Positions 19,884 to 45,467 of a stretch of DNA of 64,000 nucleotides are shown here, piece after piece. The translations under genes were made by a program, and so were the position numbers. Below the pieces are notes generated by a model that was given only the letters and a program-made list of their open reading frames with translations, was not told the DNA's origin and ran no database searches. This DNA comes from Scytolyngbya sp. HA4215-MV1. Its GTDB lineage: Bacteria; Cyanobacteriota; Cyanobacteriia; Leptolyngbyales; Leptolyngbyaceae. The stretch is from positions 1-64,000 of the forward strand of contig JAHHIA010000010.1 in NCBI GenBank assembly GCA_019359045.1, read 5' to 3'. Position 1 is the first letter of the stretch; every line of letters begins with the position of its first letter.

Positions 19884-20060
19884 TTATAGCAGTCCTAGAA
19901 AGCTGAGAACACCCTGTCCAGTCACAAATTCAGTGATTAGGGCGGCTGCAAAACCAATCATGGCAAATCGTCCGTTCCAAATTTCTGCTTGAGGAGTAAA
20001 GCCGAACTTCCAAGCGTTCCGATCTTCGGTCACAGAAGTAACTTTTTGAGTATCTTGCAT
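19884..20060 (-). CDS. hli: High-light-inducible (HLIP/Scp) one-helix protein
   Basis: This 58-residue protein begins [13 protein letters not shown] and contains the HLIP/LHC-like helix [20 protein letters not shown]. The chlorophyll-ligand Glu and Asn and the Arg of the ExxNGRxAMxG motif are all present, followed by [11 protein letters not shown]. HLIPs sit in the thylakoid membrane, bind chlorophyll and carotenoid, and dissipate energy or help photosystem II assembly under stress. The size is normal for the single-helix form. It is divergent from the amine permease and has its own strong terminator. Expression under high light is expected from the family but not visible in the sequence. Confidence 0.95.
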
Positions 20061-20243: not shown

Positions 20244-21764
20244 ATGACTGAACAAAAAACGAAAGGAATTGTCCGCTACGAAAGTGTTGATGATGGCTAT
20301 TTAGAGAAACGTCAGCTCAAGAGAAGTGCTGGTTGGATCTTACTCTGGGCATTAGGGGTAGGAGCTGTAATTTCGGGTGACTTTTCTGGGTGGAACTTTG
20401 GGCTGGCAGTGGGTGGATTTGGTGGGTTGGCGATCGGTACGTTTTTGATGGCAGCTATGTATGTCTGCATGGTCTATAGCATTGCAGAGCTGTCGGCAGC
20501 ACTACCTCATACAGGTGGCTTTTATTCCTTTACTCGCAATGCGTTTGGTCCGGTGGGGGGCTTTATCTGCGGGGTTACAGACACCATTGAATATGTGATC
20601 ACGCCTGCGGTTGTGGTCTTTTTCATCGGCAGCTATATGAACACCTTGCTGCCGAGTGTGCCCCTGGCTGTCTGGTGGGTATTGTTCTATGCGGTGTTTG
20701 TGTTTATCAATATTAGAGGGGTGGAGCTGACCTTAAAGGCAGGGCTGGTTGTGACTGCGCTGGCAGCAGCGATTCTGGTGATTTTTTTCGTTGCTGCTAT
20801 TTTTTCAGGCAAGTTTCAACCAGAGTTACTGTTCAATATTCCCCCTGAGGGTACCAATCCCAAGTGGCTACCTTTTGGTTGGGGAGGGGTGTTTAAGTCC
20901 TTACCTTATGCTATCTGGTTTTATCTGGCGATCGAACAACTGCCTCTGGCAGCCGAAGAAGCTCACGATACCGTACGAGATATTCCTAAGGCTTTGAACT
21001 GGGGGATTATTACCCTACTGTTGCTTTCGCTGTTTGTGTTGATCCTCAATCCGGGTCTGTCAACATCGTTTACCGATCCTACGACAAAAGAGGTATTTAC
21101 AGGGGCGGCAGCCATTAGTAAAACCGGTGCCCCGATTGCTGATGGGTTTAAAGCCATCTTTGGTGAGGGGGCTGTTTTTACCACCTTAACGACCTTAGCA
21201 GTGGCGGGTCTGATTGCCAGTTTCCACACGATTATCTATGCCTATGGACGGGTATTATTTTCTCTGTCCCGCGCAGGTTATTATCCACGCTGGATTTCAA
21301 TTACCAGTCGATGGCACACTCCGGCGATCGCCTTGATTGTGGGGGCAGTGATTGGCTTGGCTTGTATCTTTATTCTGGACAAGATAGGTCAAACAGCCCT
21401 GATTGGCAGCACCCTGATTAATATGGCAGTGCTGGGTGCGGTGATTTCTTATGCGACCGTGATGATTAGTTATATCAAGCTCAAAGTTGATCGCCCCGAT
21501 CTCGAACGTCCCTATCGCAGTCCCTTAGGAATTGGGGGCGCAGCGGTGGGGGCATCGCTTGCGATTGTTGCCCTGCTTGCCTGCTTTGCTGACCCAACTT
21601 ATCAACCTGCTGTGATATGGGTTGTCATTTTTCTAGCTGTCATGCTTGTCTATTTCTTTGGTTACTCGCGCAATAAACTGGTGGCTCGTGCCCCAGAGGA
21701 GGAAGAAGCACTGCTGCAAAGGGCTTTGCAAGAAATTGAACAACCTGAAGTGTTAGGCAAGTAA
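20244..21764 (+). CDS. APC-family amine/amino-acid permease (ethanolamine permease-like)
   Basis: The 506-residue protein has about 12 membrane helices. Its N-terminal half closely follows ethanolamine permeases: LKRSAGWILLWALGVGAV, SGDFSGWNFGLAVGGFGGL, MVYSIAELSAALPHTGGFYS and FGPVGGFICGVTDTIEYV. It should carry an amine or amino acid into the cell by proton or ion coupling. It is the first gene of an operon with an aldehyde dehydrogenase (3 bases downstream) and a glutamine-synthetase-like ligase. That context supports an amine such as ethanolamine over a standard amino acid. Substrate is inferred. Confidence 0.85.
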   Translation: MTEQKTKGIVRYESVDDGYLEKRQLKRSAGWILLWALGVGAVISGDFSGWNFGLAVGGFGGLAIGTFLMAAMYVCMVYSIAELSAALPHTGGFYSFTRNAFGPVGGFICGVTDTIEYVITPAVVVFFIGSYMNTLLPSVPLAVWWVLFYAVFVFINIRGVELTLKAGLVVTALAAAILVIFFVAAIFSGKFQPELLFNIPPEGTNPKWLPFGWGGVFKSLPYAIWFYLAIEQLPLAAEEAHDTVRDIPKALNWGIITLLLLSLFVLILNPGLSTSFTDPTTKEVFTGAAAISKTGAPIADGFKAIFGEGAVFTTLTTLAVAGLIASFHTIIYAYGRVLFSLSRAGYYPRWISITSRWHTPAIALIVGAVIGLACIFILDKIGQTALIGSTLINMAVLGAVISYATVMISYIKLKVDRPDLERPYRSPLGIGGAAVGASLAIVALLACFADPTYQPAVIWVVIFLAVMLVYFFGYSRNKLVARAPEEEEALLQRALQEIEQPEVLGK

Positions 21765-21767
21765 GAC

Positions 21768-23213
21768 ATGGGTTCGCATCTTCAAGAATTGCTGCTGATT
21801 GGGGGCGATCTCGTCCCCGCTGCTTCTGGTCTGCAGGCCGATTTGGTTGATCCCGCAACAGGAGAAATCTGGGCAGCAGTGGCGGCAGGTGGGGTAGAAG
21901 ACATTGATCGCGCTGTTCAGGTGGCGGATCAGGCTCGCGCTAGTTGGCGTAAAGTCAACAGTCACGATCGCACCCGCATTCTGTTGAATTTGGCAAATTT
22001 AATTCGAGCGCAGGGGGAAGCGCTGGCTCAACTAGAAAGCCGTAATGTGGGTAAGCCGATCCGAGAAGCCAGAGAGGAAGTAGGACTGGCAGCAGATTGT
22101 TTTGAATACTATGCCGGAGCCATTAATAAAATTGGCGGACAGACGATTCCGGTCGCAGCGGCTGGGATCAGTATGACGTTGCGGGAGCCTGTAGGGGTCT
22201 GTGGCTTAATTGCTCCCTGGAATTTTCCGATCGCCATTACAGCCTGGAAGGTTGCTCCAGCGCTGGCAATGGGAAACACGATCGTTCTCAAACCAGCATC
22301 CCAAACCCCATTGACTGCTTTACGGTTGGGAGAATTGGCGCTTCAGGCGGGAGTCCCCGCTGGCGTGTTTAACGTTATACCCGGCGTTGGGAATGTTGCC
22401 GGAGCGGCGTTAGCCAGCCATCCCTTGGTGCGAAAAGTTTCCTTTACCGGCTCAACCGAAATTGGCTCAGCGGTTATGAAGCTGGCAGCAGAGGACATTA
22501 AACGGATTACTTTGGAGCTGGGAGGAAAATCTGCTAACCTGGTTTTTGTCGATGCTGATCTGGACAAGGCGGTGCTCAAAGCGCTGTGGAGTGTTCTCGG
22601 CAATGCGGGACAGGATTGTTGTGCCCGATCTCGCCTCTTGCTAGAACGTCCTCTCTACGAAGAGTTTCTTTACCGCCTCAGCCACGAGTTTAAAAAGCTC
22701 AAGATCGGATTACCGCTGCAAGAAGAAACAGAGATCGGTGCTTTGATCTCGCTGGCGCATCGTGATCGGGTACAACATTACATTGAACTGGGCAAGCAAG
22801 AAGGGGCAACTTTGGTTTGTGGGGGCATGATCCCTTCTCAAGATGAATTTAGAGGTGGCGCGTTTCTGCAACCCACGCTCTTTGCGGATGTTGATCCCAA
22901 CATGAAAATTGCCCAGGAAGAAATTTTTGGTCCTGTGCTCTGCGCTATTCCGTTTGATACCGAGGAAGAAGCGATCGCGATTGCCAACCAGAGCTTGTAT
23001 GGATTATCTGGCTCCATTTGGACGCGAGATATGGGGCGGGCATTGCGTGTGGCACGGGCGATCGAGACAGGGGTGCTCTCCATCAACACTGGGCACAGTG
23101 TTCACCTGGAAGCGCCCTTTGGCGGAGTCAAACGCAGTGGCTTAGGACGAGAACTTGGCTTAGCAGTGCTCGATCACTACAGCGAACTCAAAAGTATCTT
23201 TATTGCTGAATAA
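21768..23213 (+). CDS. NAD(P)-dependent aldehyde dehydrogenase
   Basis: The 481-residue enzyme has all ALDH landmarks: PWNFPIAITAWKVAPALAMG (cofactor), SFTGSTEIGSAV, ELGGKSANLVF with the general-base Glu, the catalytic Cys in NAGQDCCARSR, and EEIFGPVLCAIPF. It is closest in look to betaine-aldehyde / gamma-glutamyl-aminoaldehyde dehydrogenases. It starts 3 bases after the permease stop and is followed 30 bases later by a glutamine-synthetase-like ligase, so the three are almost certainly one transcript. The likely substrate is the aldehyde of a gamma-glutamylated amine. Betaine aldehyde is an alternative. Confidence 0.9.
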   Translation: MGSHLQELLLIGGDLVPAASGLQADLVDPATGEIWAAVAAGGVEDIDRAVQVADQARASWRKVNSHDRTRILLNLANLIRAQGEALAQLESRNVGKPIREAREEVGLAADCFEYYAGAINKIGGQTIPVAAAGISMTLREPVGVCGLIAPWNFPIAITAWKVAPALAMGNTIVLKPASQTPLTALRLGELALQAGVPAGVFNVIPGVGNVAGAALASHPLVRKVSFTGSTEIGSAVMKLAAEDIKRITLELGGKSANLVFVDADLDKAVLKALWSVLGNAGQDCCARSRLLLERPLYEEFLYRLSHEFKKLKIGLPLQEETEIGALISLAHRDRVQHYIELGKQEGATLVCGGMIPSQDEFRGGAFLQPTLFADVDPNMKIAQEEIFGPVLCAIPFDTEEEAIAIANQSLYGLSGSIWTRDMGRALRVARAIETGVLSINTGHSVHLEAPFGGVKRSGLGRELGLAVLDHYSELKSIFIAE

Positions 23214-23243
23214 TCGCCGAATAAGCCTTTTCGAGGAATCAAT

Positions 23244-24629
23244 ATGGCAAACTCTATTCGCGGTCTGCTCGATGTTGCTACCCTCACACAGATGATTGAG
23301 GATGAACAAATTGAAACTGTCCTAACAGTCATGCCCGACATGTATGGGCGGCTAATGGGCAAGCGTATTACCGGGCATTACTTTATCCAAGATGTCTTAG
23401 CGCAAAATATTCATGCTTGCGATTATTTACTCGCTTGCGATATGGAAATGGACCCTGTTCCTGGCTATGCCTTTACTAGCTGGGCAAGCGGGTATGGTGA
23501 TTTTCGCTTGATTCCGGATCTCAAAACGCTTCGAGTTGCTTCCTGGTTAGAAAAAACAGCGATTATCCTCTGTGATGTTTACAACGAGGAAGAAGACATT
23601 CCCATCAGCGTTGCTCCCCGCAATATCCTGCTCAAGCAATTAGATGCAGCAAAAGCCCAAGGCTACTATCCCATGGGGGCGTCAGAACTGGAGCTTTATA
23701 TCTTTGCAGATTCCTATGAATCTGCTCGTCGTAAGCACTATCACGATTTAGAAACGATCGGGCACTATATTGAGGACTACCATATCTTCCAGGGCACCAA
23801 AGAAGAATTTCTCGTCGGTGCGATTCGCAAACATTTAGATCGCTCAGGGATTCCGGTCGAATTTTCCAAAGGAGAATGGGGACCCGGACAGCAAGAGATT
23901 AACTTGCGCTACGCTGACTTTCTCGAAATGTGCGATCGGCATGTTCTCTACAAACACGTTGCCAAAGAGATTGCCTGGCAAAACGACGTTGCCATTACCT
24001 TCATGGCAAAGTGGGATGAGCGCTTTGCAGGTTCTAGTATGCATGTACATGCTAGCCTTTGGGATAAGGCAGGCAAAGCCTTGTTCCCAGGCAATGAAGC
24101 CTTTGGTCCGGTGCAATGTTCCCCGTTATTCCGCTGGTTTTTGGGGGGATGGATGACCCACATTCGGGAAATTTTTGCTTTCTACGCACCTTATCCCAGT
24201 TCTTATAAGCGCTACGTGGCAGGCTCTTTTGCCCCCACTGGCATTGCCTGGTCTTACGACAATCGAACAGCTGGCTTTCGGATCTTAGGGCATGGCTCTT
24301 CCCTGCGGCTAGAATGTCGTGCACCTGGTGCAGATGCCAATCCCTATCTCGCATATGCAGCAACCTTAGCAGCCGGGCTCGATGGTATCAAGAACCAAAT
24401 CGAACCCCCTGCGATGTTTGAGGGGGATGTCTACGAGGCTCGTGACTTACCCCAAGTTCCTTTCAGTCTCAACGAAGCGATTCATGAGCTAGAAAAAAGC
24501 GTATGGGCACGGGAAGCCTTTGGTGAGGGGGTGATCAATCACTACTTGCATTTCTTTCGCGTAGAGCAGCGCAAGTTTGATGAGGTCGTTACCAGTTGGG
24601 AGCGAGCACGCTATTTTGAACGAGCTTGA
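23244..24629 (+). CDS. Glutamine-synthetase-like gamma-glutamylamine ligase
   Basis: The 461-residue protein has the glutamine synthetase fold: DMYGRLMGKRITGHYF at the N-terminus, the metal-binding Glu motif GASELELYIF, WGPGQQEINLRY, SSMHVHASLWD (ATP/ammonia His region) and GSSLRLECRAPGADANPYL. It differs from housekeeping GlnA and resembles the GlnA4/PuuA group, which joins glutamate to ethanolamine or polyamines using ATP instead of making glutamine. The C-terminal Tyr-adenylylation motif (NLYDLP) is not preserved (VYEARDLPQVP instead). Position behind an amine permease and an ALDH supports an amine substrate. Which amine is not readable. Confidence 0.87.
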   Translation: MANSIRGLLDVATLTQMIEDEQIETVLTVMPDMYGRLMGKRITGHYFIQDVLAQNIHACDYLLACDMEMDPVPGYAFTSWASGYGDFRLIPDLKTLRVASWLEKTAIILCDVYNEEEDIPISVAPRNILLKQLDAAKAQGYYPMGASELELYIFADSYESARRKHYHDLETIGHYIEDYHIFQGTKEEFLVGAIRKHLDRSGIPVEFSKGEWGPGQQEINLRYADFLEMCDRHVLYKHVAKEIAWQNDVAITFMAKWDERFAGSSMHVHASLWDKAGKALFPGNEAFGPVQCSPLFRWFLGGWMTHIREIFAFYAPYPSSYKRYVAGSFAPTGIAWSYDNRTAGFRILGHGSSLRLECRAPGADANPYLAYAATLAAGLDGIKNQIEPPAMFEGDVYEARDLPQVPFSLNEAIHELEKSVWAREAFGEGVINHYLHFFRVEQRKFDEVVTSWERARYFERA

Positions 24630-32501: not shown

Positions 32502-33266
32502 TTAAGGCAGAATCAGGAAGCTTTGAATGAGATCGTGAACTTGGTTTAATCCGGTTTCTAAATCACTGATAAACAAGAACCCTGATCGGGTCAAAACGGA
32601 AGCTTGTTCATCGGAAGGTTTGTTCCCACGTACCATCGCTGCCAGGGTGTCGGCAGTGCGTCCACTGCCCGCCATGACCACCACGGGCCGATGCGACCTC
32701 ACACTATTGGTCACATCTATCCAGGCAATTTTGCCGCCGTTGATGAGGAGTGTCACTGAGGTCGCTTTCTGTGAGAGTGCATCGGCGACACGGGCGATCC
32801 AGGGCGATTCGTCACCCCATTGGCGACCGGGAACCAACACAAAGTGGCTATGATTAGTTTCTAGGGGAGCTGCATCAGATGACGGGGAGGAACGACCGAG
32901 ATTTGGCAAGATTACAGTCCCGATCGCGGCGACACCCACTAAAGGAAAAGTTGCCGATGCTTCAGCTCTGGCTTGCCCAATTAACTGCATGATGCCTGCA
33001 TCGGTGCCCCCATCGATAACAAAAGCCCCCATGTTTTCCGCCAAAGGCACCAGCGTTTCGACAAAAAGTGCGCGTAACTGTTGCATAGAATGCTCGCTAA
33101 TGCCGCTAGCCCCGCCAACCAGTACCAGGGTGGGTTGAGGATTGGATAAGCCAATTTGACTCAAAGCATCAGGAACTTCTGCTGGATAATTCACCTGAAT
33201 GGCTTCCGCTGTGGCTCCATTCGGAAATCGCAGTTTAAAGGGTTTGAGCGTAGAGAATTGTGTCAT
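32502..33266 (-). CDS. LSDAT-type SLOG domain protein, distal copy
   Basis: This 254-residue protein is a Rossmann-like SLOG of the LSDAT (TRPM-N) type: LVLVGGASGISEHSM (48-61), VIDGGTDAGIMQLIGQAR (83-100), NHSHFVLVPG (138-147), WGDESPWIARV, LLINGGKIAW and MAGSGRTADTLAAM. The DGGTxxGIM and HxHFxLV motifs are those of the nucleotide-binding TRPM homology region, which senses NAD-derived or ADP-ribose-type ligands. The start overlaps the SLATT stop by four bases (ATGA), so translation is coupled. It is about 40-50% like the proximal copy by eye. It is the likely ligand sensor of a three-gene system. The ligand is unknown. Confidence 0.82.
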   Translation of the reverse strand: MTQFSTLKPFKLRFPNGATAEAIQVNYPAEVPDALSQIGLSNPQPTLVLVGGASGISEHSMQQLRALFVETLVPLAENMGAFVIDGGTDAGIMQLIGQARAEASATFPLVGVAAIGTVILPNLGRSSPSSDAAPLETNHSHFVLVPGRQWGDESPWIARVADALSQKATSVTLLINGGKIAWIDVTNSVRSHRPVVVMAGSGRTADTLAAMVRGNKPSDEQASVLTRSGFLFISDLETGLNQVHDLIQSFLILP

Positions 33267-33964
33267 CCTGCTTCAGGTGCCGATTCTTCAGCCGATTGAG
33301 GGGTGGATTTCGTTGGGGATTGGGATTGGCTATCTGCTTTTTGGTGGGGGGCTTGAGCAACTTGAGTTGAATAAGCCTCGACATCTTTTTGAATAATTTC
33401 TTCAACTTGGGTTGCAAAGAGATTAAAGGCTTGCCGATGACCTTCTGCAACATAGTCAGCATACAGTCCACTTAGCTGAAAGAACTGCCAGCCTTGGATT
33501 TTGAGCGATTCTGCTGATCGACGGTAGTGCCGCCAACGTTCGCCATAGTTGAAAAACTCTTCCACAGCAGATGACACCGCCACGATCGCTCCAAGAGAAA
33601 TGGTGGTATAACGAATAGCTCCAGCAATTCTAGGATTATTGGGAGGGGTCAAGCTAATCAAAATCGGAATAATGACACCGCCAATAATCGTTGTCAAGCG
33701 TAAACGCTTATACCAAGTTTGGGAGCGACCGGCGCGTCCTTCCATCCACAGAATCTGATCGAGCCAGCGAGACTGCAAATATTTTTTTTGTAGCTCAGTA
33801 ATCTCTAGAACATCAAAAATTGCGTTGTATTCCTTTTTTAACTGCTCGTTATAACTGAGGGATTTGGTCGGGGTTGACTGGCTGGTTGGCTGGGATGCTG
33901 AGGATATAGCTGTACTTACAGCGATCGATGGATCAGAAGCGCCCTCAGAACCTCCAACAACCAT
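33263..33964 (-). CDS. SLATT/DUF4231-type two-helix membrane effector
   Basis: The 233-residue protein has a Ser/Thr-rich N-terminus (1-35), a helical region (YNEQLKKEYNAIFDVLEI, about 38-55), two hydrophobic helices (LTTIIGGVIIPILISL, about 90-105, and TTISLGAIVAVSSAVEEF, about 120-137), then the hallmark ERWRHYRRSAESLKIQGW (142-159) and a Gln/Ser-rich tail. This layout is the SLATT/DUF4231 family, predicted to form membrane pores when a partner SLOG or cGAS-like protein senses a nucleotide. It starts 6 bases after the first SLOG gene and overlaps the second by four bases. A pore or toxin role is inference. Confidence 0.8.
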   Translation of the reverse strand: MVVGGSEGASDPSIAVSTAISSASQPTSQSTPTKSLSYNEQLKKEYNAIFDVLEITELQKKYLQSRWLDQILWMEGRAGRSQTWYKRLRLTTIIGGVIIPILISLTPPNNPRIAGAIRYTTISLGAIVAVSSAVEEFFNYGERWRHYRRSAESLKIQGWQFFQLSGLYADYVAEGHRQAFNLFATQVEEIIQKDVEAYSTQVAQAPHQKADSQSQSPTKSTPQSAEESAPEAG

Positions 33965-33970
33965 AGGAAT

Positions 33971-34780
33971 TTACCCTTTGCTAGATAAAGTTTGTTTAAT
34001 TACTTTAGCAAGCCCTTCGGAATTGTCGAGATCGATCGTCTGAAGAAATCCAGATGCAGCAATTTGCTCGGCTCTTTTGTCCCTAATTTCGCCTTGTAAT
34101 GCAGCTGCAAGTGCATCGGCTGCTCGTCCGGTGCCATTGATGGCAATCACAGTCCGCCCAACCTGGATGTTTTGTACGGTGTCTTTCCAAGTCACTTCAC
34201 CCCCATTGATGACGACCGCGATCGACGCAGTGGGGATAGTTAATAAATTCGCGATTTGAGCGATCCAAGCAGATTCATCTCCCCATTGGGAACCAGTGCC
34301 CGGCTCCGCTTCGGGAACTAGGATGAAATGAGTATGGTGAGTTTCTAGAGATGTGGCATCGCTGGCAGAAGAAGAAAATTCAGGAAATGTGATCTTTCCG
34401 ATCGGTGCAACGCCAATCAGAGGAAAAGAGGCTTTAATCCGATGTCGTGCCTGCCCCATAAGTTGCATGATGCCGGAGTCTGTACCACCATCAATGACAT
34501 AAGCGTTGAGGCTTTCTGCGATCGGGGCTAACACTTTGGTAAAGATCCGATGCAATTTGGCAAAGTGGTAATGCCTTAAACCAGCGGCTCCGCCGATGAG
34601 GACTAAGGTTGGACGAGGACTTTGCAGTCCGAGCTGTCGTAGAGTCGAGGGCAATTCTTGGTTGGAACTGGCAAGGATTGCTTTGGCGATCCCTTCTGGA
34701 AAAGTGATATCGAAGGGCTTTTCCATCGAGCTGTGTTGAGAGGGGTAAGTTGTACTCTGCACCTGGGGGATCGCAAACAT
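33971..34780 (-). CDS. LSDAT-type SLOG domain protein, proximal copy
   Basis: I start at the ATG at 34780 (MFAIPQVQ), which has GAGGA nine bases upstream. The frame opens at 34816. The 269-residue product has the same SLOG order as the distal copy: LVLIGGAAGLRHYHF, VIDGGTDSGIMQLMGQAR, HHTHFILVPEAEPG, WGDESAWIAQI, VVINGGEVTW and INGTGRAADALAAAL. The two copies differ throughout, so they are old paralogues, probably forming a heteromeric sensor or binding different ligands. It is the first gene of the tight minus-strand operon. Confidence 0.82.
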   Translation of the reverse strand: MFAIPQVQSTTYPSQHSSMEKPFDITFPEGIAKAILASSNQELPSTLRQLGLQSPRPTLVLIGGAAGLRHYHFAKLHRIFTKVLAPIAESLNAYVIDGGTDSGIMQLMGQARHRIKASFPLIGVAPIGKITFPEFSSSASDATSLETHHTHFILVPEAEPGTGSQWGDESAWIAQIANLLTIPTASIAVVINGGEVTWKDTVQNIQVGRTVIAINGTGRAADALAAALQGEIRDKRAEQIAASGFLQTIDLDNSEGLAKVIKQTLSSKG

Positions 34781-35214
34781 TAATAGATTCCTCAAAGATT
34801 TGCTGGTTGCCTTCAAAAGAAGTCCCTTTTGATTAAAGCTCTGTTCTGGAATTGCGACTCAACAGCCGCAGACTAGAGCCTATCGGTTCACATAAAGCCT
34901 GACCCGATCGCCCTAAAATTTCCTGCAATTACAGAGAACAGATCATTAATCATCGCTGTCAATCAGATTGCACCCTCTTCAAAGCCCTGAAAGTCTTGCC
35001 AGTTGCACGATTTTATTTGTTGAAAATTTTAAGGGAATTGATAACGATTAAAACCAGAAAAATTTAAAACTTCAAAATTATAGATTAGAAACTAGGCGGG
35101 CTGACACCTGATAACTCTTCTGTTCCCTTTGGCATAAGTGTTCCAGGATGATGATGAAACTTTGTCTTTTGAAATAGTCAGGATGCCTAACAGGGGGACG
35201 GTGAACATTCTGTG
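34781..35214. other. Leader region upstream of the SLOG-SLATT operon
   Basis: About 434 bases between the nnr stop and the first SLOG start. No gene is seen. It is A/T-rich around 35010-35080 (TTTTATTTGTTGAAAATTTT) and should hold the operon promoter on the minus strand. I see no clear palindromic operator. The gap separates nnr from the SLOG operon, so they may be transcribed independently. Confidence 0.4.
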
Positions 35215-43752: not shown

Positions 43753-44526
43753 TTATTCGGGCGTGACATACGCAGCCGTAATGCCGCCATCTACAACAAA
43801 GGTGGAACCGTTAACGAACGAGGACTCATCACTGGCTAAAAACAGGGCAGCATTCGCCATTTCTTGTGCCTTACCAAAGCGTCCTAGCGGGATGTGCACT
43901 AGCCGACGCTGACGACGATCTGGATCTGCTAACAATTCTGCCAGCAATGGGGTTTCCACCGGACCCGGACAGAGGGCATTGACGCGGATGTTCTGGCGAG
44001 CAAATTCAACAGAAATTTCTCTTGTGAGTGAGAGCACCCCCCCTTTGCTAGCGGTGTAGGCGGATTGCGAAGTCGCTGCTCCTAGCAATGCCACAAATGA
44101 GGCTGTGTTAATTACAGAGCCGCCTCCCGCTCTGAGCAAGGCGGGAATGCCGTATTTACAGCCCAAAAACACCCCTTTCAAGTTGATGTTAATAGTGAGA
44201 TCCCAAATGGCTTCTTCAGTATCGACTACTGAGCCGTCATCTGCGTGAAAAATGCCTGCATTGTTAAACAGAATGTGCAGCCGATCGTATGTCGCTTCTG
44301 CAAACTCAATCATGTGCTGCACATCTGCCGCTTTAGAGACATCCCCTCCTACAAAAGCTGCTTCGCCCCCAGACGATCGAATCATCGTCACTGTTTCTTC
44401 CCCAGCTTGGCCATTCAAATCGCAAACCACAACCTTTGCTCCTTCTTTAGCAAATAGCAAAGCAGATTCACGACCAATTCCACTGCCTGCACCCGTGATA
44501 AGAGCAACTTTGTTCCCTAGACGCAT
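43753..44526 (-). CDS. Short-chain dehydrogenase/reductase
   Basis: The 257-residue SDR has the classical Rossmann motif ALITGAGSGIGRESA, NNAG in LHILFNNAGIF, catalytic Ser in NTASFVALLG and YTASK (Y157, K161), ending FVNGSTFVVDGGITAAYV. C-terminus and length fit the glucose-1-dehydrogenase/alcohol-dehydrogenase branch. Acidic D36 after beta-2 (VVCDLNG) suggests NAD rather than NADP. Its upstream neighbour is a PuuD-like gamma-glutamyl hydrolase on the same strand. Together they could finish an amine pathway begun at 20244-24629 by oxidising a gamma-glutamylated alcohol. That is inference. Confidence 0.9.
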   Translation of the reverse strand: MRLGNKVALITGAGSGIGRESALLFAKEGAKVVVCDLNGQAGEETVTMIRSSGGEAAFVGGDVSKAADVQHMIEFAEATYDRLHILFNNAGIFHADDGSVVDTEEAIWDLTININLKGVFLGCKYGIPALLRAGGGSVINTASFVALLGAATSQSAYTASKGGVLSLTREISVEFARQNIRVNALCPGPVETPLLAELLADPDRRQRRLVHIPLGRFGKAQEMANAALFLASDESSFVNGSTFVVDGGITAAYVTPE

Positions 44527-44747: not shown

Positions 44748-45467
44748 TTATCTCCCTTCTTCGTTTCCCCCAGCCGCTTTGACCAGGGCTGCAAACAGAC
44801 GGGGGTGGATGGATTCGACGGAGGACAATTCTGGATGCCATTGAACCGCAATCAGCCAGGGGTGGTGGAGATGCTCGATCGCTTCGACTAAGCCATCGGC
44901 AGCTTGGGCAACTTGCCGCCAACCTTCTGGAACTGTTTGAACTGCCTGATGATGCCATGAGACAACGGTGAGTTCGGTGCCCAACCATTCTCCCAAACGG
45001 CTCTGGGGATTGATCTGAACCGGGTGTTCGATCGGCCGGCGCGGGTGATCGAGTCGATGGTGAATCTGATCGCCATACACCTCGGGAACATGAGTGATGA
45101 GTGCTCCCCCACTGGCAACTGTGAGAATTTGCATTCCTCGGCAAATTCCTAAGATAGGGATTTTGGAAGCCATCGCTTGTTTCGCTAGAGTCAGTTCAAA
45201 CTCATCCCGTTCTGCGTCCACCATGTAAATGGTGGGGTGATGGCTGCCCCCGTAGGCTTCAGGTGCAATATCTCCACCACCCGAAAAAACCAAACCATCA
45301 ATGATTTCTAGTAGACGAGCAGGTTCTGGTTGGTTCGGTGGAAATAAAATGGGAACGCCGCCTGCTGCCTGGATAGCATCCACGTAAGCACCCGGTAGCG
45401 TAAATTCTCCTGATTCACTGCGGCTGTAAGTTGTGATGCCGATAATAGGAAATTGCCGATCGTTCAA
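44748..45467 (-). CDS. PuuD-like gamma-glutamyl-amide hydrolase (class I amidotransferase fold)
   Basis: The 239-residue protein is a C26-type hydrolase: ITTYSRSESGEFTLPGAYVD at the N-terminus, GLVFSGGGDIAPEAYG, catalytic C109 in LGICRGMQI, and the pair H211/E213 in VQWHPE. Members split gamma-glutamyl-4-aminobutyrate (PuuD) or similar amides to glutamate plus the free acid. It precedes the SDR by 221 bases on the same strand. This is the hydrolase expected at the end of a gamma-glutamylated-amine pathway. The substrate here is uncertain. Confidence 0.88.
   Translation of the reverse strand: MNDRQFPIIGITTYSRSESGEFTLPGAYVDAIQAAGGVPILFPPNQPEPARLLEIIDGLVFSGGGDIAPEAYGGSHHPTIYMVDAERDEFELTLAKQAMASKIPILGICRGMQILTVASGGALITHVPEVYGDQIHHRLDHPRRPIEHPVQINPQSRLGEWLGTELTVVSWHHQAVQTVPEGWRQVAQAADGLVEAIEHLHHPWLIAVQWHPELSSVESIHPRLFAALVKAAGGNEEGR

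What the first reader, a model, noticed from the sequence alone, without database searches (positions are those of the whole stretch)
20244..24629. Three-gene amine-use operon with a GlnA4/PuuA-type ligase in a cyanobacterium
Seen: an ethanolamine-permease-like APC transporter, an ALDH and a glutamine-synthetase-like ligase, with 3- and 30-base gaps. Known: GlnA4-type ligases gamma-glutamylate ethanolamine in Streptomyces, and PuuA does so for putrescine. Cyanobacteria are not generally known for ethanolamine use by this route. Substrate is inferred.
Basis: partly seen in the sequence, partly recalled or inferred. Interest (0 to 1): 0.65.

Follow-up and report, generated by a model that had tools for sequence, protein, structure and literature searches.

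The report
Cyanobacterial ethanolamine-use pathway, gamma-glutamyl route
A cyanobacterium carries, in two nearby gene groups, a complete predicted set of genes to import ethanolamine (a piece of other organisms' membrane fats) and turn it into glycine, by a pathway known from Streptomyces and marine bacteria.

Summary
The three-gene operon is real and at the stated coordinates: APC permease, aldehyde dehydrogenase, glutamine-synthetase-like ligase, gaps 3 and 30 bases. The ligase is not a glutamine synthetase and not PuuA. It falls in a strongly supported clade with C. salexigens Csal_0679, a Ruegeria ligase beside TRAP genes in the Eto order, and an Embleya (Streptomycetaceae) ligase in a GlnA4-type cluster. 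In three other cyanobacterial loci the five genes plus a GntR regulator form one cluster with the same six parts as Embleya's. Most likely mechanism: ethanolamine is imported, gamma-glutamylated, oxidised twice to gamma-glutamylglycine, and hydrolysed to glycine and glutamate. An alcohol dehydrogenase partner points to an amino alcohol, not putrescine. EutB was not found in the genome. The ligase is in 20 of 388 sampled cyanobacterial genomes, and the partner genes co-occur with it. Substrate, activity and joint expression are inferred. Verdict: a complete member of a known pathway kind, in a phylum where my searches of open-licence papers showed no report.

The parts
20244..21764 (+). APC-family ethanolamine permease (TIGR00908 type), 506 aa
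   Evidence: ORF; TIGR00908 397.8 bits, above cut-off 381.75; 61% identical to the Thermomicrobium permease annotated 'eat' that lies beside that record's ligase and SDR
21768..23213 (+). Aldehyde dehydrogenase, predicted gamma-glutamyl-aminoacetaldehyde dehydrogenase, 481 aa
   Evidence: PF00171 584 bits; motifs ELGGK and GQDC found (their catalytic role recalled); 48% identical to the ALDH beside the Arthrobacter ligase, 41% to E. coli PuuC
23244..24629 (+). GlnA4-type gamma-glutamylethanolamide synthetase (glutamine-synthetase fold), 461 aa
   Evidence: PF00120; clade with Csal_0679/5dm3, the TRAP-linked Ruegeria ligase and Embleya, 100* and 100/99*; 12 of 13 tested metal, glutamate and ATP residues kept, D50 and E327 equivalents replaced by P73 and F329; model pLDDT 86.3, best PDB match 5dm3 Z 51.1, rmsd 1.5, 375 aligned
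43753..44526 (-). Short-chain dehydrogenase, predicted gamma-glutamylethanolamide (alcohol) dehydrogenase, 257 aa
   Evidence: 79% identical to the SDR of the single cluster in Elainella L018; the other own-genome matches listed are 44% or less; PF13561; YTASK and GAGSGIG motifs (roles recalled)
44748..45467 (-). Class-I glutamine-amidotransferase-like peptidase C26, predicted gamma-glutamylglycine hydrolase, 239 aa
   Evidence: 71% identical to the C26 of L018, only match in the genome at E<=0.001; PF07722 202 bits; GICRG and QWHPE motifs (roles recalled)

Best explanation
The window holds a complete GlnA4-type pathway for using ethanolamine, split into two groups 19 kb apart. The permease brings in ethanolamine; the ligase joins it to the gamma-carboxyl of glutamate with ATP, giving gamma-glutamylethanolamide; the short-chain dehydrogenase oxidises the alcohol to an aldehyde; the aldehyde dehydrogenase oxidises that to gamma-glutamylglycine; the C26 hydrolase releases glycine and regenerates glutamate. 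The net result is nitrogen and two carbons delivered as glycine without free acetaldehyde, cobalamin or a microcompartment. Shown here: gene presence, families, kinship, conserved residues, co-occurrence and co-location in relatives. Inferred: substrate, reaction order, flux and regulation.
For: Permease passes the curated ethanolamine-permease cut-off. The ligase clade excludes GlnA and PuuA and includes 5dm3, whose PDB title names it C. salexigens Csal_0679, the gene numbered next to Csal_0678, which PMC10132767 uses as a reference for the ethanolamine-binding protein EtoX (passages). It also includes the Ruegeria B32 ligase, whose neighbours (RpiR, amidohydrolase, three TRAP genes, ALDH, Fe-ADH) follow the order given there for Phaeobacter. 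The Embleya ligase has counterparts of all five partners (ALDH, SDR, C26, permease, GntR) within about 3 kb, in the layout described for Streptomyces in PMC6529630. SDR and C26 are in the same window. Among 388 cyanobacterial genomes the ligase occurs in 20; SDR in 18 of those 20 against 6 of 368 others, C26 18 of 20 against 51 of 368, permease 15 of 20 against 13 of 368. EutB not found. In Anaerolineales L085 the gene beside the ligase is an aldehyde ferredoxin oxidoreductase, with homologues beside the ligase in L072, L078 and L081 and further off in L034, which fits an aldehyde intermediate.
Against: No activity, growth or expression data. S. coelicolor GlnA4 itself was not in my collections; Embleya stands in for it. 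At the GSI N264 site PMC6529630 gives Glu for GlnA4, as in Embleya and Nonomuraea, but the window has Ala, like 5dm3 and PuuA. That paper also says the Streptomyces permeases lack similarity to EutH and Eat; the window's TIGR00908-type permease is 41% identical to Embleya's. The GntR regulator of related clusters has no ortholog, no GTA-N8-TAC site lies upstream of the operon, and nothing shows that the two gene groups are co-expressed. Identity to ligases in clusters like the studied ones is 43-50%, far enough for a shift of specificity. Cyanobacterial loci L015, L022, L027 and L056 show none of the partners in the stretch held, and L031 only the permease. Two ligase-positive genomes lack SDR and C26 at the thresholds used and five lack the permease. 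Y179 of GSI aligns with a conserved Tyr here, whereas PMC6529630 reports a replacement in GlnA4. The co-occurrence test is not corrected for shared ancestry.
Confidence: 0.8

Rival explanations
1. The same enzymes act on another small amino alcohol or monoamine (for example a propanolamine or alaninol-like compound), with ethanolamine a minor substrate.
For: The ligase clade is broad (104 rows) and neighbours vary: Allomeiothermus has a PLP-aminotransferase-family gene and a distant ALDH, Paraburkholderia has a C26-type hydrolase but no SDR or ALDH among the features annotated nearby. GS-like ligases elsewhere act on diverse amines (1-naphthylamine ligase, PMC11335346, abstract start in a listing).
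Against: Permease passes the ethanolamine-permease cut-off; the clusters of studied or proposed function that it resembles are for ethanolamine.
Confidence: 0.14
2. A PuuA-type putrescine pathway.
For: Same ligase family, an ALDH and a C26 hydrolase as in the puu operon.
Against: Ligase 27% identical to PuuA and outside it in the trees; 193.9 bits against 650 for the PuuA model; permease 23% to PuuP; an SDR, not a PuuB-like oxidase, is the recurrent partner (65 of 90 loci).
Confidence: 0.03
3. A true glutamine synthetase or a general amine-detoxifying ligase placed by chance beside transport genes.
For: GlnA is the best-scoring NCBIfam model, though at 244 bits against a 429 cut-off.
Against: The genome has its own GlnA (L001, grouping with cyanobacterial and E. 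coli GlnA) and two more PF00120 matches; the residues aligned with D50 and E327 are replaced; partners co-occur.
Confidence: 0.03

Closest known systems
GlnA4 ethanolamine cluster of Streptomyces (SCO1611-SCO1615; PMC6529630)
   Same: SDR, ALDH, GS-like ligase, APC-type permease and glutamine-amidotransferase-like hydrolase; same six-part set in Embleya L120 and in cyanobacteria L017-L019
   Different: In the window the five genes are in two groups and the divergent GntR regulator is missing; identities to the Embleya parts are 36-54%; Ala instead of Glu at the N264 site
Eto pathway of Phaeobacter / Csal_0678-0679 of Chromohalobacter (PMC10132767; PDB 5dm3)
   Same: Homologous gamma-glutamylating ligase (45% to Ruegeria B32) and the same four predicted reactions
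   Different: The relatives seen here, Ruegeria B32 and S. meliloti, have an iron-containing alcohol dehydrogenase and an N-formylglutamate-amidohydrolase-type hydrolase with an RpiR regulator, and TRAP transport in Ruegeria; here SDR, C26 and an APC permease
E. coli Puu pathway
   Same: Logic of gamma-glutamylation, ALDH, C26 hydrolase
   Different: PuuB oxidase instead of SDR; ligase only 27% identical and outside the clade
Eut (EutBC ammonia-lyase) pathway
   Same: Substrate, and an Eat transporter in short eut operons (PMC6529630 passage)
   Different: No EutB match in the genome

Membership tests
GlnA4-type gamma-glutamylethanolamide pathway | Ligase groups with known or proposed ethanolamine ligases, apart from GlnA and PuuA | tested here: met
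   100*; 100/99*; SCO1613 itself not available, Embleya used
GlnA4-type gamma-glutamylethanolamide pathway | Metal, glutamate and ATP residues of GSI kept | tested here: met
   12 of the 13 such sites tested carry the GSI residue in all 102 clade rows; the 13th, N264 (glutamate), is A in 91 of 102, the window included, and E in Embleya and Nonomuraea
GlnA4-type gamma-glutamylethanolamide pathway | Ammonium-site residues D50 and E327 replaced | tested here: met
   Window P73 and F329; F or W at 327 in 102 of 102; at 50, P in 92 and D in 3 of 102. P73 lies in a low-confidence stretch of the model
GlnA4-type gamma-glutamylethanolamide pathway | Partner genes for alcohol oxidation, aldehyde oxidation, hydrolysis and uptake | tested here: met
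   All in the window, in two groups
GlnA4-type gamma-glutamylethanolamide pathway | Divergent EpuRI-like regulator | tested here: not met
   L018 GntR finds only a 30% identical partial match, E 7.5e-4, in the genome; present in L017-L019. Accessory, not a catalytic feature; EpuRI's own family is not stated in the passages seen
GlnA4-type gamma-glutamylethanolamide pathway | Ligase activity with ethanolamine, none with ammonia | not testable with these tools
   Needs enzyme assay
Ethanolamine permease (TIGR00908) | Score over curated cut-off | tested here: met
   397.8 against 381.75
PuuA / Puu pathway | Score over PuuA model cut-off | tested here: not met
   193.9 against 650
PuuA / Puu pathway | PuuB-type oxidase partner | tested here: inconclusive
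   None among the five genes; the genome was not searched for it
GlnA glutamine synthetase | Score over TIGR00653 cut-off | tested here: not met
   244.2 against 429.15
Eut pathway | EutB present | tested here: not met
   No match in the own genome at E<=0.001; the E. coli control rings

The most novel reading that the evidence does not exclude
Some oxygenic phototrophs that (from recalled knowledge) make no phosphatidylethanolamine of their own harvest ethanolamine from other organisms' membranes through this pathway, feeding glycine directly into their own glycine/photorespiratory metabolism as both nitrogen and carbon: a mixotrophic trade with eukaryotes and heterotrophs that my searches did not find described for cyanobacteria. 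The genes look horizontally mobile and are kept as separable modules (C26-SDR pair, ligase group).
Probability: 0.45. Interest if true: 0.55.

Novelty: new member of a known kind. Interest (0 to 1): 0.42.

Why it matters
If true, a patchy set of cyanobacteria (20 of 388 sampled genomes, 19 of them in two families) can use a major membrane-lipid head group as nitrogen and carbon source. It makes a plain prediction (growth on ethanolamine, gamma-glutamylethanolamide in extracts) testable in relatives such as Elainella or Leptolyngbya strains. It also suggests that the oxidation and hydrolysis steps were built from non-homologous enzymes in different phyla (SDR plus C26, or Fe-ADH plus formylglutamate-type amidohydrolase, with an aldehyde ferredoxin oxidoreductase beside the ligase in some Anaerolineales).

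Tried and rejected
PuuA and GlnA membership: rejected by scores and trees. EutBC: EutB not found. NtcA control: the pattern GTA-N8-TAC has 8 matches in the window against 4.0 expected (10 of 100 shuffles reach 8) and none between 18126 and the operon start; nothing to claim. The promoter scan gave nothing useful upstream of the permease: of 5 promoter-like sites the one in that intergenic stretch is on the other strand. Regulator: L018 GntR has no ortholog in the genome. Other neighbours of the ligase in distant loci (APS kinase, COX15/CtaA, UbiA, DUF1329, PilZ, response regulator; one protein without a family) looked unrelated to the pathway; my guess before that call that some were polyamine ABC transporters was wrong for the two tested, while L085 does have a solute-binding protein nearby. 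Fe-ADH and formylglutamate-type hydrolase homologues (S. meliloti queries, E<=1e-10) appear only in the 4 alphaproteobacterial loci L114, L115, L117 and L119 of the 90 scanned. Literature: seven searches; those on cyanobacteria and ethanolamine are (20 of 80 papers listed; 20 of 136; 2 of 2; 2 of 2; 9 of 9), and no listed title or abstract start reports ethanolamine use by this route in cyanobacteria. The review PMC9397018 mentions cyanobacteria 12 times; the passages shown concern GS/GOGAT, nitrogen control, polyamines and references. Subscription papers are not held. Papers seen as passages only: PMC6529630, PMC10132767, PMC9397018; as listing only: PMC11335346.
Full report
Observation. The window is G000:C13:1-64000 of a 6.6 Mb genome; the closest named ligase loci are from Leptolyngbya and other cyanobacteria. 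The permease passes the curated ethanolamine-permease model (397.8 over 381.75 bits); the ligase is PF00120 but fails the cut-offs for GlnA (244.2 of 429), type III (215.5 of 470) and PuuA (193.9 of 650); the ALDH fails the cut-offs of all 25 models listed of 41 matched.

Gene set in relatives. A scan of named genomes kept the best 80 of 172 loci with a ligase relative, all of 53% identity or more, in cyanobacteria, Acidobacteriota, Chloroflexota, Myxococcota, Binatota, Armatimonadota and others. In the cyanobacterial loci L017, L018, L019 and L023 the order is permease-ALDH-ligase with a C26 peptidase and a short-chain dehydrogenase downstream within 5.2 kb, and in the first three a divergent GntR/FCD regulator. 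Over 90 loci (the 80 plus 10 plasmid-collection regions), tblastn at E<=1e-10 finds the window's SDR in 65, C26 in 38, ALDH in 35, permease in 8 and the L018 regulator in 8 (L018 itself included); some loci are short, and a few SDR hits (L025, L067) are only 30% identical and probably paralogues. Against the pattern, cyanobacterial loci L015, L022, L027 and L056 show none of the partners in the stretch held, and L031 only the permease.

The missing genes. The window's operon has neither SDR nor C26 beside it. Searching the own genome with the L018 proteins found the C26 (71%, the only match) and the SDR (79%, the others 44% or less) at 44748-45467 and 43753-44526 of the same window, - strand, 221 bases apart, C26 first. 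The split is not unique: of the 18 ligase-positive genomes with both SDR and C26, 14 keep these two within 1.5 kb of each other, while in G003, G005, G019, G041, G057 and G234 the pair lies on another contig or hundreds of kb or more from the ligase (some contigs are short, so 'other contig' can reflect fragmentation). The regulator has no ortholog in the genome.

Distribution. In 388 genomes of the class, the ligase (E<=1e-100) occurs in 20, the window's included: 10 in family f1, 9 in f24, 1 in f8. SDR (E<=1e-80): 18 of these 20 and 6 of 368 others; C26 (E<=1e-50): 18 of 20 and 51 of 368; permease (E<=1e-100): 15 of 20 and 13 of 368; all four in 14 of 20. Fisher p values are 6e-24, 6e-13 and 1e-15 but ignore shared ancestry. 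At most a handful of candidates per genome were scored in these searches. The C26 family is clearly also used without the ligase, and one C26 match (G041) has stops inside.

Ligase kinship. In a 121-row tree the window ligase lies in a 25-row group (99*) of cyanobacterial ligases, inside a 104-row clade (100*) that also holds 5dm3, 11zs, the Ruegeria, S. meliloti, Aminobacter and actinobacterial ligases and the Thermomicrobium ligase near 'eat'; GlnA, the C25 paralogue and PuuA lie outside. A careful 33-row tree repeats this at 100/99*. PuuA has a very long branch, so its exact place is unsure. Spirulinaceae L031 groups, with weak support, with Acidobacteriota rather than with the other cyanobacteria, and MAG rows labelled KSB1, Anaerolineae and Nitrospinota sit just outside the cyanobacterial group; horizontal transfer is a fair inference, MAG contamination a caution.

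Active site. On the alignment, six metal ligands, the glutamate residues G265, R321 and R359, and H271, R339 and R344 are identical to E. coli GlnA in 102 of 102 clade rows. The D50 column holds P in 92, A in 3, D in 3 and G in 2 of the 102, two rows not shown (window P73), and the E327 column F in 95 and W in 7 (window F329; F331 in the GlnA4 model of PMC6529630) (site roles from that paper's passages, except R339, recalled). N264 is A in 91 of 102; the paper gives Glu for GlnA4, as in Embleya and Nonomuraea, so the window differs there. Y179 aligns with a conserved Tyr in all 102, unlike the paper's GlnA4 model. P73 and Y179 both lie in stretches of the model with pLDDT under 50. The predicted structure matches 5dm3 best (Z 51.1, rmsd 1.5, 375 aligned) and 11zs next (Z 47.6, rmsd 2.0, 421 aligned); all GS-like enzymes share the fold, so this alone shows no function.

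Function. PMC6529630 (passages) shows GlnA4 of S. coelicolor glutamylating ethanolamine and needed for growth on it, with a cluster of SDR, ALDH, glnA4, divergent repressor, permease (in other Streptomyces) and glutamine amidotransferase; the later steps are predicted there. The Embleya locus L120 shows that layout by tblastn: ALDH at +1.4 kb from the ligase, SDR at +3.0, divergent GntR at -0.1, permease at -1.0, C26 at -2.5 (the record is unannotated). PMC10132767 (passages) describes the Phaeobacter version with an ethanolamine-binding TRAP protein (Kd 7.9 uM) and proteomic induction on phosphorylethanolamine; Ruegeria B32 L119 has the same gene order and a homologous ligase. Thermomicrobium has ligase-SDR-'eat'. 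The SDR step implies a substrate with an alcohol group; gamma-glutamylputrescine needs an oxidase (PuuB, annotated in E. coli). The aldehyde ferredoxin oxidoreductase beside the Anaerolineales ligase L085, with homologues beside the ligase in L072, L078 and L081, fits an aldehyde intermediate. EutB was not found. Hence ethanolamine to glycine via gamma-glutamyl intermediates is the best reading; substrate, order and regulation are inferred.

Novelty. The pathway kind is known. Its presence as a complete set in cyanobacteria did not appear in the searches named, which cover open-licence papers only and were partly seen as capped lists. That cyanobacteria lack phosphatidylethanolamine is recalled, not looked up; it would make the substrate an outside resource. 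I therefore score it as a new member of a known kind, moderately interesting because it is readily testable and extends ethanolamine use to phototrophs.

Noticed in passing
window 32502-34816 (-): Two LSDAT_prok (SLOG-type) genes flank a DUF4231 gene with a weak, below-cut-off SLATT_3 match, a trio that resembles predicted nucleotide-signal effector systems (recalled).
   Followed up: no
window 19884-20060 (-): A 58-aa ORF that looks like a high-light-inducible (Hlip-type) protein sits divergent to the permease, about 180 bases away (identity recalled from its sequence, not searched).
   Followed up: no
G000:C25:19165-20163 (L002): A GS-like paralogue in the same genome scores 473.1 over the 469.6 cut-off of TIGR03105 type III GlnT (a 339-aa part of the ORF) and groups with S. 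meliloti and Elainella relatives.
   Followed up: partly
L072, L078, L081, L085 (and L034 further off): In Anaerolineales-type and Bipolaricaulota loci an aldehyde ferredoxin oxidoreductase homologue lies beside the ligase (Pfam run on the L085 copy only), a possible anaerobic version of the aldehyde step.
   Followed up: partly
L115:10986-15306: In Aminobacter plasmid pAA03 the ethanolamine-type cluster is followed directly by bhc genes of the beta-hydroxyaspartate cycle, which takes glyoxylate and glycine (recalled).
   Followed up: no
G128, G183, G271, G280: Four cyanobacterial genomes hold SDR and C26 at the thresholds used but no ligase; they may have lost the ligase or use the pair differently.
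   Followed up: no
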